Source: Nanobdellota archaeon (GTDB lineage Archaea; Nanobdellota; Nanobdellia; Parvarchaeales; Parvarchaeaceae). From it: 33,521 nucleotides of DNA. The first letter of the stretch is position 1. Each line of letters opens with the position of its first letter. The notes below the pieces were generated by a model. The model was given only the letters and a program-made list of their open reading frames with translations. It ran no database searches and had not been told where the DNA came from. The DNA is taken from the NCBI GenBank assembly GCA_021802105.1, contig JAKAAW010000007.1, positions 1 through 33,521 of the forward strand, written 5' to 3'. Both the position numbers and the translations under genes were made by a program. Positions 23,506-32,883 of the stretch are shown here, in pieces.

Positions 23506-24645
23506 ATGTTCGATTTCATCAAGAAGAAACTAAAAGAATCAATCAATTCGATACAGCACAGGCTAGCTAAAGAGGAGCAGGACGAGCAGAAAGAGGTTGA
23601 GACAAAAGAATTTAGGGAGCAGGTAGACGAAATCAAGCAAGAAAAGCAGATAATAGAAGGAAAACCTGAGAAAAAATCCGCTGAGAAATCTCACGCTGAA
23701 GAGAAACACAAAAATAATGCAGACAAGCATGAGGAGAGACCTGGGACAAAAAAGGAAATCAAAAATGCAAAGGAGCACGCCCCAGAAAAGAAGAAAAGGA
23801 TACTTTCGCACAAGATAACAAGTGAAGATATAGCTTCCATATACGGCGATATAAAAGAGGCTCTCCTTGAGAATAACGTAGCCATGGAAGTAGCGATGGC
23901 GATACACAAGGACCTTGAAGAATCGCTTATAGGGAAGGAAGTGTCCTTCCTGTCGAACAAAAAAGAGGTGGAGACTGCCATAAAGAAAAGCATCTCAGAC
24001 GTAATGTTTGAATATTCCTCTGATAGGTTTCTTTCCGATATAAGGAGAAAGAAACCCTATATCATCCTTTTCATAGGCGTCAATGGCGCGGGTAAGACGA
24101 CTACCCTTGCAAAACTGATAAACTTCCTGCAGAAAAATAATCTAAGGGTCGTCGTGTCAGCAAGCGACACCTTTAGGGCGGCTTCCATAGAGCAGGTTGA
24201 GATACACACAAAGAAGCTCGGCGCGAAACTGATAAAGCACAACTACGGCGCCGATCCTGCGGCAGTGGCTTTCGACGCAATAAAGCATGCACACAGCGAG
24301 AACGCGGACGTGGTTATGATAGACACTGCCGGCAGAAGCGACATAAACAAGAACCTTATAGAAGAGCTGAAGAAAGTAAAACGCGTCAGTAAACCTGACC
24401 TGACCATATTTATTGGAGACGCCCTGACAGGTAACGATGCTGTCAACCAGGCCAGGATATTTGATAAAGAAGTAGGTATAGACACAGTCATACTCTCTAA
24501 AGCTGATGTGGACAAGAAAGGGGGCGCTATCCTCTCCATATCATATGTAACTAAGAAACCGATATTGTTTCTAGGGACAGGCCAGGGTTATGAAGATTTA
24601 GTGCCATTCAGCAAAGAGAGAACGGCTGAATTCATCCTAAGTTAA
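23506..24645 (+). CDS. ftsY: Signal recognition particle receptor FtsY
   Basis: A 379-aa SRP receptor GTPase that docks the SRP-ribosome complex at the membrane. Residues ~1-105 are a highly charged Lys/Glu linker (A domain). Then come the N domain (ITSEDIASIYGDIKEALLENNVAMEVAMAI) and the G domain with G1 GVNGAGKTTTLAKL (~res 188-201), DTFRAASIEQ, G3 DTAGRSDINKNLIEEL, G4 SKAD and the closing FLGTGQGYEDLVPF. It follows pfdA as in many archaea, but after the inserted HD remnant. Its last bases overlap the convergent LamG gene by nine bp. Confidence 0.96.
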   Translation: MFDFIKKKLKESINSIQHRLAKEEQDEQKEVETKEFREQVDEIKQEKQIIEGKPEKKSAEKSHAEEKHKNNADKHEERPGTKKEIKNAKEHAPEKKKRILSHKITSEDIASIYGDIKEALLENNVAMEVAMAIHKDLEESLIGKEVSFLSNKKEVETAIKKSISDVMFEYSSDRFLSDIRRKKPYIILFIGVNGAGKTTTLAKLINFLQKNNLRVVVSASDTFRAASIEQVEIHTKKLGAKLIKHNYGADPAAVAFDAIKHAHSENADVVMIDTAGRSDINKNLIEELKKVKRVSKPDLTIFIGDALTGNDAVNQARIFDKEVGIDTVILSKADVDKKGGAILSISYVTKKPILFLGTGQGYEDLVPFSKERTAEFILS

Positions 24646-26553
24646 GCCACTAGCAACCACCATTGGCATGAATCCATTCGGAGGATAGGCACGCGTGCGA
24701 AGCCAGTAGATGGTTCCACCGATATTTGAACTTGACTGAAAACTCATCTCTATCGGTATTCCACTTGATATTTCTGAAGATGGATTGACCTGCGTCGTAT
24801 AATTAGCTTGTGCAGTTGTGCTGGATGTTGATGCTATGACAGAATAAACGACATTACCGCTTGGTTGAGGGAATGTAAAAATATCGGACGAACTGGAAGC
24901 TGTTATAAGCCCAAATTCTGCATTTCCGGTTCCTATAGTACCAAAGTTGCCAGAACCCCACCCTGTATTAAATCCGATACCACCATAGTAGCACGAAGAG
25001 GTAGAACCACTACCAGTTAGGCTTCCATAAAAGTCCATGATTGCATTTGCAGAAAATGTAGATGTGGAAGCTATAGTAGTAGTCTGTCCAAAACAGCCCC
25101 CAGCATTTGTTGCCGTAAAAGTAATTCCGTTATTAATGGTATAAGGAACGTATCCGTTTGTTGCTGTCCATCCACTCGGCAGAGCTGTTTCTGCAAAGTT
25201 CCAGTAATTGTTGAATACATTAGCTCCATCATCGTATTCCGCATATATCGGAGATAATTGCGGGGCCTCACCTGTATTTATGGTATTGAACGTGTTATAG
25301 TTTTTCGGATCGAATGTCATATAAACCGTTGTTGATGATAGTGCTGGTATCGAGCCTAGCTTCAGCCAATACGTACTGGATGTACTGGCTGAGCCAGCTC
25401 CATTATACTCAATATTATAGGCTGTCCCCGTGTTGCCGTTCCCGCTGTAATCATTAGCGTTGCCTGCCAGAGGATAATAAGCCAGAAGCTTGCTTTTGTC
25501 AACTGGACCACCATTCAATCCATTATAGTAAATACTTGCTATCTGTGATGATGAAAGGGAAGCATTATAGATTTGTACGTTTGCTAGAGAACCGCTGACA
25601 GGGTTGCATCCAGGACCTGACGTCACAGCGTGAGTCCCGCTTATCGTCAGCTGACTCTGTGCCTGCAGTGGACCATCAGCGGGTACCGGACTTCCGACAA
25701 GCTTTCCGTTGTAATAAACGAACAGGTCCGCCCCGTTATAGACACCGACAAGGTTCTGCCAGACTCCTTGGGCTAGCTTCTGCCCCGGGAAGTCCCTAAA
25801 AAGTGTGCCTGTGCTGTTCCTAATGCTCCACGATTCTGTAGGTGGATTACTGCCAGATTCTATAAGGAAAAAGAAACCAGAACTTGGGCAGCCGGACCCG
25901 CTGCTTAAGACGTCCTCCCAGTAATTGCCAGACGCCCCCCAATAACTGTTGTTAATCGGATCAACCCAGAACGAGACAGTTATCGTTTTTGTAGGCGGCG
26001 TAGCCATAGGGGTGCTTATGGAACCGGCAGGGCTCTGTGAGGGATAAGCAAGATTTCCGCTTTCCAGCCAAGATGGGATTACAGTTCCGTTTGGATATAT
26101 AAACTGCACGTTTTGCAGGTTGTTGGCTTCATACTGAGAGTACTGTGCGGAGTCTAGTACCACCTGCTGCTGAAAGGGGGAAGAAGTCGCCAAAGACTGG
26201 GTGTTTATTATCCTCAGAGCAAGGGTCTGCATCGAACTGATCTGGGTGCCGCTGGAAATGGAAAGACCATTCGTAAAGGTTATACCATAATTGCTGAAAT
26301 AATCCGCGGCTATCGCTCCCATAGAGAGCATGAAAGAATTCTGTGCCTCTGATGAAGGTAATATACTTTGGAAAAAGGAGTACTGGCTTGCAAGGTTGGC
26401 TATAATATCGTTGCTACTCGTCGCACTGCTCTGTAGAACATTTATGTTCTGGCTTGACTGGAGGTTGTTAGCTTCAAGACTGAAAACAGCAAGTACGACC
26501 GCGATAAGCAGGGCGGCAAAGAACACCGTTACAAACTGGCCTTTTTTGTTCAT
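24637..26553 (-). CDS. Large cell-surface protein with pilin-type signal, LamG and DUF2341-like domains
   Basis: A 638-aa exported protein. The N-terminus MNKKGQFVTVFFAALLIAVVLAVFSLEANN resembles an archaeal class III (type IV pilin-like) signal, with KKGQ before the helix. Residues ~50-150 are an alpha-rich region. Residues ~188-350 form a LamG/concanavalin-A-like jelly roll (ITVSFWVDPINN ... QGVWQNLVGVYNGADLFVYYNGKLVG ... LANVQIYNASLSSSQIASIYYNG). After it, YWLKLGSIPALSSTTVYMTFDPKNYNTFNT is a DUF2341-like segment, and a second lectin-like sandwich may cover the C-terminal ~150 residues. It is Ser/Thr/Asn-rich, so probably glycosylated and exposed. A surface adhesin or sugar-binding appendage role is inferred. 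Monocistronic, convergent with ftsY. Confidence 0.82.
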   Translation of the reverse strand: MNKKGQFVTVFFAALLIAVVLAVFSLEANNLQSSQNINVLQSSATSSNDIIANLASQYSFFQSILPSSEAQNSFMLSMGAIAADYFSNYGITFTNGLSISSGTQISSMQTLALRIINTQSLATSSPFQQQVVLDSAQYSQYEANNLQNVQFIYPNGTVIPSWLESGNLAYPSQSPAGSISTPMATPPTKTITVSFWVDPINNSYWGASGNYWEDVLSSGSGCPSSGFFFLIESGSNPPTESWSIRNSTGTLFRDFPGQKLAQGVWQNLVGVYNGADLFVYYNGKLVGSPVPADGPLQAQSQLTISGTHAVTSGPGCNPVSGSLANVQIYNASLSSSQIASIYYNGLNGGPVDKSKLLAYYPLAGNANDYSGNGNTGTAYNIEYNGAGSASTSSTYWLKLGSIPALSSTTVYMTFDPKNYNTFNTINTGEAPQLSPIYAEYDDGANVFNNYWNFAETALPSGWTATNGYVPYTINNGITFTATNAGGCFGQTTTIASTSTFSANAIMDFYGSLTGSGSTSSCYYGGIGFNTGWGSGNFGTIGTGNAEFGLITASSSSDIFTFPQPSGNVVYSVIASTSSTTAQANYTTQVNPSSEISSGIPIEMSFQSSSNIGGTIYWLRTRAYPPNGFMPMVVASGLT

Positions 26554-31866: not shown

Positions 31867-31902
31867 CTTATAAATTTATATAAGATAAAAAGTATAAGAT
31901 AA
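31867..31902 (+). promoter_or_regulatory. Repeated operator-like boxes upstream of the MNT gene
   Basis: The box TATAAGATAA occurs twice as exact direct repeats at 31879-31888 and 31893-31902 (14-bp period), the second ending one base before the ATG at 31904. An imperfect palindrome CTTATAAATTTATATAAG at 31867-31884 overlaps the first box and contains the likely TATA element. The arrangement suits binding by an RHH-type dimer such as the N-terminal domain of the gene product. Confidence 0.55.
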
Positions 31903-31903
31903 T

Positions 31904-32491
31904 ATGGTAAGCGAAGGTTATCGAGCGGTGATGGTTACAGAAGAGAGCTACGATCGGCTAATTAAGACTAGGACTGCTCTTTCTAGGCTAACTGGCAAGA
32001 AGGAAAGTATCAGTGGTTCTATCATGTACTTGCTTCAGAGGTCCTTGATTTCTGTCGGCTTGGATATGGACATAGAAAAATATATAATCGAAATTGTGGA
32101 AGAATTGAAAAAAATCGAGGAGGTAGACGGGATAGTCCTGTTCGGATCTATCGTAAAAGGAAATTATAACGATCTCAGTGACGTTGATCTGCTGATAATC
32201 ATGGAGGGAGACATCTACAGATTTGTGAAGAAACTGTGGGGCATAAGGAAAAAAACCATGCATTACGAAGAAAAATTTATGGAAGAGGGAAAATATTATA
32301 GGTTTAGTCCACTGGTATTACACGATACAGATCTAAAAAAGTTCAGTCCATTCTATTTCGATATAGTTGACTATGGCATAATCATGTACGAAAAGAACAA
32401 AGTCGTCACAACCTTTTTTAATTATATAAACAAATTTCCACATAAGAGACATATTACTGCAGCAGGCGTAGAACTCACATGGAGAAATTAG
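31904..32491 (+). CDS. MNT-type nucleotidyltransferase with N-terminal RHH-like domain
   Basis: A 195-aa protein. Residues ~1-55 (YRAVMVTEESYDRLIKTRTALSRLTGKKESISGSIMYLL) look like a VapB/RHH-type DNA-binding segment. Residues ~75-170 are a minimal nucleotidyltransferase with GSIVKGNYNDLSDVDLLII, the GSxxxG...SDxDLxI active-site motif of MNT antitoxins. In characterised HEPN-MNT systems the MNT AMPylates a Tyr near the HEPN active site to neutralise it. The downstream HEPN gene overlaps by 13 bp. The RHH segment could give autoregulation through the repeated upstream boxes. Confidence 0.82.
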   Translation: MVSEGYRAVMVTEESYDRLIKTRTALSRLTGKKESISGSIMYLLQRSLISVGLDMDIEKYIIEIVEELKKIEEVDGIVLFGSIVKGNYNDLSDVDLLIIMEGDIYRFVKKLWGIRKKTMHYEEKFMEEGKYYRFSPLVLHDTDLKKFSPFYFDIVDYGIIMYEKNKVVTTFFNYINKFPHKRHITAAGVELTWRN

Positions 32492-32883
32492 GCACAAGGG
32501 CAATCGATAGCGCAGAACATTGGTATTCTGTAGCGGAAGACTCGATTAAACTTGAGAATTACGATACTGCCGTTTATGGTATGGAGATGTCTCTGGAGAT
32601 AGGGATGAAAGGGATATTGATGAAAAATAAGATAGACTATCCTAAAATACATGACGTGACTGCAGTGCTCAGGAGCAGGGCTGGACGGCTTAAACTGAGC
32701 AGACAGTTCAGCGACAGGATGGATGATATGCTTGAGACTTTTCAGATTCTGTTGAAATACAGGAACGACGCGGGGTATTTGTTCTCAGGAGCTTCCGATC
32801 CAGCGGTGTTAAAGGAGGTCGCCGTCGAAAACATAGAAAAAGTACGCGAATATCTAGACCTATTAAGGAAAGAGATATTGTGA
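32479..32883 (+). CDS. HEPN-domain protein, partner of the MNT
   Basis: A 134-aa all-helical HEPN-family protein (DSAEHWYSVAEDSIKLENYDTAVYGMEMSLEIGMKGILMKNKIDYPKIHDVTAVL). HEPN toxins are RNases using an Rx4-6H motif. Here the equivalent site reads KYRNDAGYLFSG, with Arg but Tyr in the usual His position, so it may be a catalytically altered member or a Tyr-AMPylation-type site. HD within KIHDVT belongs to another helix. The overlap with the MNT gene and the conserved order suggest a TA or substrate-binding pair. Confidence 0.8.
   Translation: MEKLGTRAIDSAEHWYSVAEDSIKLENYDTAVYGMEMSLEIGMKGILMKNKIDYPKIHDVTAVLRSRAGRLKLSRQFSDRMDDMLETFQILLKYRNDAGYLFSGASDPAVLKEVAVENIEKVREYLDLLRKEIL

What the first reader, a model, noticed from the sequence alone, without database searches (positions are those of the whole stretch)
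31904..32883. RHH-MNT plus HEPN module with Tyr in the HEPN His position
Canonical HEPN-MNT toxin-antitoxin pairs have a HEPN RNase with Rx4-6H and a small MNT. Here the MNT has an added N-terminal RHH-like DNA-binding segment, and the HEPN site reads RNDAGY. The pair may be a variant in which the toxin is inactive as an RNase or uses Tyr, with a self-regulating antitoxin.
Basis: partly seen in the sequence, partly recalled or inferred. Interest (0 to 1): 0.6.

Follow-up and report, generated by a model that had tools for sequence, protein, structure and literature searches.

The report
Toxin-antitoxin pair with self-repressing enzyme antitoxin

Summary
Window 31904-32491 encodes a 195-aa nucleotidyltransferase (MNT) with about 52 extra N-terminal residues; 32479-32883 encodes a 134-aa PF05168 HEPN with R95-N-D-A-G-Y100, so Tyr sits at the usual His position. 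The claimed novelty of the Tyr does not hold. All 34 distinct family HEPNs tallied have Tyr there, none His. The closest solved fold (AF0298, 2hsb) and many HEPNs of the same phylum are also R-x4-Y. Published 'Class II' HEPN/MNT modules are defined by lacking RX4HXY but keeping a Tyr. An alternative His (H58, helix 2-3 loop), the kind described for AF0298, is conserved, so the toxin need not be inactive. The N-terminus is RHH-like: it matches VapB antitoxins (hhalign 95.6%) and nearly all of about 36 relatives carry it. Inverted or direct repeats lie just upstream of many copies; the window's exact direct repeat overlaps the promoter and is shared with a Thermoplasmata relative whose remaining upstream DNA has diverged. 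Best reading: a Class II HEPN/MNT module whose antitoxin is also an RHH autorepressor, exchanged between DPANN archaea and Thermoplasmata. I found no description of this fusion in the papers I could search.

The parts
31904..32491 (+). RHH-MNT antitoxin gene, 195 aa; G81-S82-x10-D93-x-D95 adenylyltransferase motif at 32144-32188
   Evidence: ORF; PF01909 43.9 bits; family of about 36; Foldseek best matches are MntA-type antitoxins 7bxo, 8xeo, 6m6w
31919..32059 (+). RHH-like, VapB-like N-terminal segment, residues about 6-52
   Evidence: PF02697 sub-cut-off in 12 of 25 members; hhalign with VapB antitoxins 95.6%, HEPN control 0.85%; AF2 helices 13-30 and 36-52
32479..32883 (+). HEPN toxin gene (PF05168, HEPN-T / Class II), 134 aa
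   Evidence: PF05168 46.2 bits; AF2 pLDDT 84.7; best Foldseek match 2hsb AF0298
32761..32778 (+). R95-N-D-A-G-Y100: Arg of the HEPN motif and invariant Gly-Tyr; Y100 is the candidate AMPylation site
   Evidence: G99 and Y100 invariant, R95 at least 90% in 22 members; all 34 distinct HEPNs tallied have Tyr, none His
32644..32652 (+). K56-I-H58 in the helix 2-3 loop: candidate alternative catalytic His
   Evidence: K56 and H58 invariant in 22 members; alternative His of AF0298-type HEPNs described in PMC3710099
32584..32610 (+). E36-x3-E40-x3-K44 in helix 2, containing the Ex3[KR] motif
   Evidence: E36, E40 and K44 invariant; Ex3[KR] motif described in PMC3710099
31879..31902 (+). Direct repeat TATAAGATAA-N4-TATAAGATAA, candidate operator, 1 nt before the start codon
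   Evidence: unique in the genome at up to 2 mismatches; chance expectation in the window 0.02 at up to 3 mismatches; conserved with L060 while the rest of the upstream region diverges
31875..31884 (+). TATA-box-like TTTATATAAG overlapping the first repeat, about 27 nt before the ATG (leaderless transcript likely; inferred)
   Evidence: sequence; conserved in L060

Best explanation
A Class II (PF05168/PF01909) HEPN/MNT toxin-antitoxin module in which the MNT antitoxin has an N-terminal VapB-like RHH DNA-binding domain. Proposed working: (1) the RHH dimer of the antitoxin, perhaps with bound HEPN, sits on the repeat that overlaps the TATA box and start codon and represses the operon [inferred; sequence support shown]; (2) the MNT transfers AMP to Tyr100 of the HEPN and so neutralises it, as in type VII systems [inferred]; (3) when antitoxin falls short, unmodified HEPN damages RNA using Arg95 with the alternative His58 and the helix-2 Glu/Lys cluster instead of the missing motif His [inferred]. 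Shown: the gene pair, the conserved motifs, the RHH-like segment, the repeats, the absence of His at the motif across the family, and kinship of pairs between Parvarchaeales-like archaea and Thermoplasmata.
For: About 36 relatives, nearly all MNT-HEPN pairs in that order, mostly overlapping. GSX10DXD exact in the window; G81, S82, D93, D95 invariant. MNT fold search returns MntA-type antitoxins. Closest PDB sequence to the MNT profile is 9xbd_E, E 5.7e-8; the 9xbd_A HEPN carries R-N-R-S-D-Y and related entry 9xbc has Phe at that Tyr. Y100, H58, E36, E40, K44 invariant, R95 nearly so. RHH. Repeats: inverted-repeat scores above 113 control promoters, Mann-Whitney p 3.7e-12, and above dinucleotide shuffles, combined p 4e-9; about 40-nt block shared with L060. 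WIN-L060 sister pairing at 100/99 in both gene trees. Three copies have a broken HEPN beside an open RHH-MNT frame (G001, G016b, G024) and no reverse case was seen, as expected if HEPN is the toxic partner.
Against: No toxicity, RNase or AMPylation data exist for this family; PMC7641770 states that Class II lacks the RNase motif and is biochemically untested, so TA function is not established for the class. The third metal-binding Asp of MntA (D71) has no conserved counterpart among the family invariants. RHH hits stay below Pfam cut-offs; PDB sequence and fold searches found no RHH structure; helix A is about 7-8 residues longer than in VapB. Repeat tests treat related copies as independent, and only about a third of copies are individually significant. 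In the window the significant repeat is direct, not inverted.
Confidence: 0.66

Rival explanations
1. The HEPN is catalytically dead and acts by binding RNA or as a regulatory or substrate-binding subunit; the pair is a nucleotidyltransferase with a helper subunit controlled by its own RHH domain, not a killing toxin-antitoxin pair.
For: Canonical His absent in all members. PMC3710099 notes that NT-associated HEPN domains lacking the motif can be inactive and may act non-catalytically. PMC2701414 considered MNT-HEPN as a possible modification system rather than a TA.
Against: H58, E40, K44 and Y100 stay invariant, and R95 nearly so, among copies only 21-38% identical to the window HEPN. Broken-HEPN/open-MNT copies, 3 against 0, point to a costly HEPN. 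Patchy, multi-copy, horizontally moving distribution.
Confidence: 0.2
2. Tyr100 is itself catalytic: it replaces the His and makes a Tyr-dependent RNase.
For: Strict invariance of G99-Y100; Tyr exactly at R+5 as in the R-x4-Y class.
Against: In characterised type VII modules the conserved Tyr near the motif is the AMP acceptor, and replacing it left HepT toxicity intact (PMC7641770). An alternative invariant His is present.
Confidence: 0.06
3. The N-terminal segment is not a DNA-binding RHH but a dimerisation or HEPN-docking helical hairpin; the promoter repeats are bound by another factor or reflect AT-rich promoters.
For: No RHH hit over a cut-off and no RHH in the fold search; upstream regions are 83% AT against 68% in controls.
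Against: VapB profile match across strand, helix A and SF-[DE]-VI helix B, control comparison negative; repeats exceed shuffles that keep dinucleotide content and are conserved where flanks are not; copies with alike N-termini share alike repeats.
Confidence: 0.08

Closest known systems
Class II HEPN/MNT modules (PF05168/PF01909), as defined in PMC7641770
   Same: HEPN of PF05168 without RX4HXY but with a conserved Tyr; MNT with GSX10DXD; frequent in archaea
   Different: MNT carries an N-terminal RHH-like segment and the promoter carries repeats; motif is R-x3-G-Y instead of R-x3-D-Y or R-Y-P
PDB 9xbd / 9xbc HEPN with nucleotidyltransferase
   Same: best solved match to the MNT family (E 5.7e-8); HEPN with R-x4-Y, Phe at that Tyr in 9xbc
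   Different: MNT chain of 120 aa with no RHH head; no accompanying paper found
HEPN-T of AF0298 type (2hsb, UPF0332)
   Same: best fold match; Arg kept, motif His absent, R-x4-Y, alternative His in the helix 2-3 region
   Different: only about 12% aligned identity; this family has K-x-H-[DN] and G-Y
HepT/MntA type VII (Class I; SO_3166/SO_3165, Aphanizomenon, Legionella)
   Same: gene order, GSX10DXD, MNT fold, conserved Tyr near the HEPN Arg
   Different: HEPN is PF05168 not PF01934/PF08780; no RX4HXY; Tyr at R+5 rather than R+7; antitoxin has an RHH-like head
VapB (PF02697) RHH antitoxins
   Same: strand-helix-helix pattern; promoter-proximal repeats as expected of an autorepressor
   Different: fused to a nucleotidyltransferase and paired with HEPN, not with a PIN toxin; longer helix A
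paREP1 RHH-HEPN fusions (PMC2701414)
   Same: RHH joined to a protein of a HEPN/MNT-type module
   Different: there RHH is fused to the HEPN and no MNT is in the operon

Membership tests
Class II HEPN/MNT module | HEPN belongs to PF05168 | tested here: met
   46.2 bits against cut-off 22; all 22 members match
Class II HEPN/MNT module | MNT of PF01909 with GSX10DXD | tested here: met
   43.9 bits against cut-off 21; G81-S82-x10-D93-x-D95 invariant
Class II HEPN/MNT module | No RX4HXY but a conserved Tyr | tested here: met
   all 34 distinct HEPNs tallied have Tyr, none His
Class II HEPN/MNT module | HEPN toxic, neutralised by MNT | not testable with these tools
   needs expression tests; three broken-HEPN/open-MNT copies are indirect support
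Type VII HepT/MntA (Class I) | HEPN of PF01934 or PF08780 with RX4HXY | tested here: not met
   PF05168 only in the window HEPN; motif R-x4-Y
Type VII HepT/MntA (Class I) | MNT passes the MntA equivalog cut-off (NF047752) | tested here: not met
   28 bits against cut-off 60
Type VII HepT/MntA (Class I) | MNT AMPylates a HEPN Tyr | not testable with these tools
   Tyr100 and GSX10DXD present; chemistry untested
HEPN-T, AF0298 type | Arg of the motif kept, His lost, alternative conserved His in helix 2-3 | tested here: met
   R95 at least 90%, H58 invariant; best fold match 2hsb
RHH antitoxin (VapB, PF02697) | Passes the PF02697 gathering score | tested here: not met
   12 of 25 members hit but below cut-off, best E 0.0097
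RHH antitoxin (VapB, PF02697) | Strand-helix-helix homologous by profile | tested here: met
   hhalign 95.6%, control 0.85%; AF2 helices 13-30 and 36-52, strand not paired in a monomer
RHH antitoxin (VapB, PF02697) | Binds repeats in its own promoter | tested here: inconclusive
   repeats present and significant as a set; binding untested

The most novel reading that the evidence does not exclude
A previously undescribed subtype of Class II HEPN/MNT toxin-antitoxin, seen so far only in MAGs of Parvarchaeales-like archaea, Micrarchaeota, Thermoplasmata and one Marsarchaeota, in which one antitoxin polypeptide is both an adenylyltransferase that AMPylates the toxin and an RHH autorepressor; modification and operon repression could then be coupled, for instance if the RHH-MNT holds unmodified but not AMPylated HEPN on the operator. 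The module has moved repeatedly as an intact pair, operator included, between DPANN archaea and Thermoplasmata.
Probability: 0.45. Interest if true: 0.6.

Novelty: new variant of a known kind. Interest (0 to 1): 0.42.

Why it matters
PMC7641770 calls Class II HEPN/MNT modules biochemically unstudied, and whether HEPNs without the Rx4-6H His are toxic is open. This family gives a clean test case with a fixed motif, one alternative His, one candidate AMP site and a visible operator candidate. It also suggests how HEPN/MNT operons, whose MNT normally lacks a DNA-binding domain, can gain type-II-style autoregulation. The shared repeat and pairwise kinship between Parvarchaeales-like and Thermoplasmata copies record gene exchange between tiny DPANN archaea and a lineage that may include their hosts.

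Tried and rejected
Tyr as an oddity of this one protein: rejected, invariant in the family and common in PF05168 of the phylum. Misbinned contig: rejected for the window, since its TopoVI-A is 74-86% identical to congeners; not excluded for the Thermoplasmata MAGs. Syntenic old locus: rejected, the pair is absent downstream of topoVI-A in the relatives examined, and in the closest one (G017) a DNA-polymerase-like ORF (my reading of the sequence) follows directly. Known defence system: PADLOC gave only weak nucleotidyltransferase hits and none for HEPN. Viral carriage: no relative in IMG/VR at this sensitivity. Direct sequence link of the N-terminus to a solved RHH structure: none. The fold search of the full RHH-MNT model returned only matches to the MNT part. 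The HEPN was folded from a single sequence, not an alignment. My regex motif tally misfiles several sequences (L138, L149, L150, L152, L153, L177, L178), so only rough class sizes are quoted, and the sample is best-scoring hits, not random.

Full report
What is there. The window holds two overlapping + strand ORFs, 31904-32491 (195 aa) and 32479-32883 (134 aa), after genes for topoisomerase VI subunits B and A. Pfam calls the first PF01909 (residues 62-118, 43.9 bits) and the second PF05168 (46.2 bits), both above cut-off. The MNT carries G81-S82-x10-D93-x-D95, an exact GSX10DXD. The HEPN carries R95-N-D-A-G-Y100.

Relatives. Searching 94 related genomes gives about 24 pairs in the same genus and family, up to six or seven copies in one genome (G015) and three in the window's own. 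A scan of 84,980 species genomes adds full-length copies in Thermoplasmata, Micrarchaeota and one Marsarchaeota MAG. In 194 genomes of the phylum, matches covering the N-terminal segment with over 190 bits occur only in the window's own genus; all others are at most 63 bits and cover mainly the MNT.

The Tyr. In 22 aligned HEPNs, W15, Y33, E36, M37, E40, K44, K56, H58, L91, G99 and Y100 are invariant and R95 nearly so. Across the 34 distinct HEPNs tallied the pattern is [RK]-x3-[GSA]-Y, never His. This is not peculiar to the family. The closest fold in the PDB to the HEPN model (pLDDT 84.7) is 2hsb, AF0298, whose motif reads R-E-E-S-D-Y. In PF05168 proteins sampled from the phylum, R-x3-[DNSTA]-Y (about 15 of 70, for example REDADY) and R-Y-P (about 30 of 70) dominate, and a small group has R-x-x-R-H. 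PMC7641770 defines Class II HEPN/MNT as PF05168/PF01909, without RX4HXY and with a conserved Tyr. PMC3710099 notes for AF0298-type HEPNs that the His is absent, the basic residue kept, and a second conserved His in the helix 2-3 insert could form an alternative active site; H58 fits that place. In Legionella HEPN even the canonical Arg and His were dispensable and a helix-2 metal site did the work (PMC11586414), so the motif alone does not decide activity. A solved HEPN-nucleotidyltransferase entry, 9xbd, has R-N-R-S-D-Y and a related entry, 9xbc, has Phe at that Tyr; its nucleotidyltransferase chain is the best PDB match to our MNT profile (E 5.7e-8). I could not find its paper.

The head. 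Residues 1-52 match no Pfam model in the window protein alone, but 12 of 25 family members hit PF02697, VapB antitoxin, below cut-off. Profile against profile with VapB-type proteins from related genomes gives 95.6% probability, P 1.1e-8, aligning the strand, helix A and the SF-[DE]-VI helix B; the HEPN profile as control gives 0.85%. The model (pLDDT 85.6 overall, about 60-80 in this part) has an extended start and helices 13-30 and 36-52. The rest matches MntA-type antitoxins by fold. The third metal-binding Asp known from MntA (D71) has no conserved counterpart among the family invariants, which leaves catalysis open.

The promoter. Directly before the start codon the window has TATAAGATAA-N4-TATAAGATAA (31879-31902), overlapping a TATA-box-like TTTATATAAG. 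It is the only such site in the 669-kb genome at up to two mismatches. The closest relative, L060 from a Thermoplasmata MAG (49% identical MNT, 51% identical HEPN), has the same repeat inside an almost unchanged stretch of about 40 nt, while the rest of the upstream DNA has diverged. Other copies often carry inverted repeats there, for example TATATACAT-G-ATGTATATA in G021a and GTATACAAA-T-TTTGTATAC in G015f. Against 113 other promoters from the same loci, each scored against its own dinucleotide shuffles, the inverted-repeat scores are far stronger (Mann-Whitney p 3.7e-12; direct repeats p 0.005). Only 12 of 35 copies pass 0.05 individually, and related copies are not independent, so the pooled p-values are optimistic.

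History. In trees of both proteins, Parvarchaeales-like and Thermoplasmata copies pair up: WIN-L060 at 100/99 in both trees, G017-L071 at 94/95 and 100/100, G021c-L075 weakly in both; G026b-L068 is starred in the MNT tree and unresolved within the same starred six-row clade in the HEPN tree. The window contig is truly of its genus, since its TopoVI-A is 74-86% identical to congeners; the relatives have other genes at this place. So the pair is a recent arrival or a survivor of losses, and pairs move as units. Three copies (G001, G016b, G024) have a broken HEPN beside an open RHH-MNT frame, and one Thermoplasmata copy (L077) is broken in both; no intact HEPN beside a broken MNT was seen except where contigs end. 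This asymmetry suits a costly HEPN, but the numbers are small.

Reading. The pair is best seen as a Class II HEPN/MNT module whose antitoxin doubles as an RHH autorepressor. Shown are architecture, conservation, repeats and kinship. Inferred are DNA binding, AMPylation of Tyr100, RNase activity through H58/R95, and TA function as such. I found no description of an RHH-MNT fusion in the papers I could search; PMC2701414 describes RHH fused to HEPN (paREP1) without an MNT partner. That search covers open-licence papers only. In a few Asgard and other archaeal relatives the MNT instead carries a winged-helix-like head (L085, L089; sub-cut-off HTH_45 and HxlR matches), so adding a DNA-binding head to the MNT may have happened more than once.

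Verdict. Observation confirmed, interpretation partly supported, Tyr not novel, RHH-MNT autorepressor variant probably new. Interest 0.42.

Noticed in passing
L085:1475-2227, L084:2677-3351, L089:2668-3447: Asgard (Prometheoarchaeum) and another archaeal MNT carry a winged-helix-like N-terminus (HTH_45 and HxlR, sub-cut-off) instead of RHH; L085 and L089 have a related HEPN downstream.
   Followed up: partly
L067 (G001), L070/L023 (G016), L072/L013 (G024): Copies with a broken or truncated HEPN next to an open RHH-MNT frame; L077 (Thermoplasmata) is broken in both genes.
   Followed up: partly
L080 (Marsarchaeota MAG) and L081 (Micrarchaeota MAG): Nearly identical pairs in MAGs named as different phyla: very recent transfer or misbinning.
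   Followed up: no
PDB 9xbd / 9xbc: Solved HEPN with R-x4-Y together with a nucleotidyltransferase, and a companion entry with Phe at the Tyr; apparently a Class II structure whose paper is not in the library.
   Followed up: partly
G015 loci L009, L017, L024, L027, L028, L029: Six or more RHH-MNT-HEPN copies in a 0.9-Mb genome, each with a different promoter repeat: possibly a set of insulated operators.
   Followed up: no
L092:2956-3747: MNT-HEPN fusion in one ORF in a MAG labelled Actinomycetes (TL1-2.bin40), from the same sample as one Nanoarchaeota relative (TL1-2.bin12).
   Followed up: no
window 24637-26553 (-): 638-aa protein with a Laminin_G_3 (concanavalin-like) domain, probably a surface protein.
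   Followed up: no
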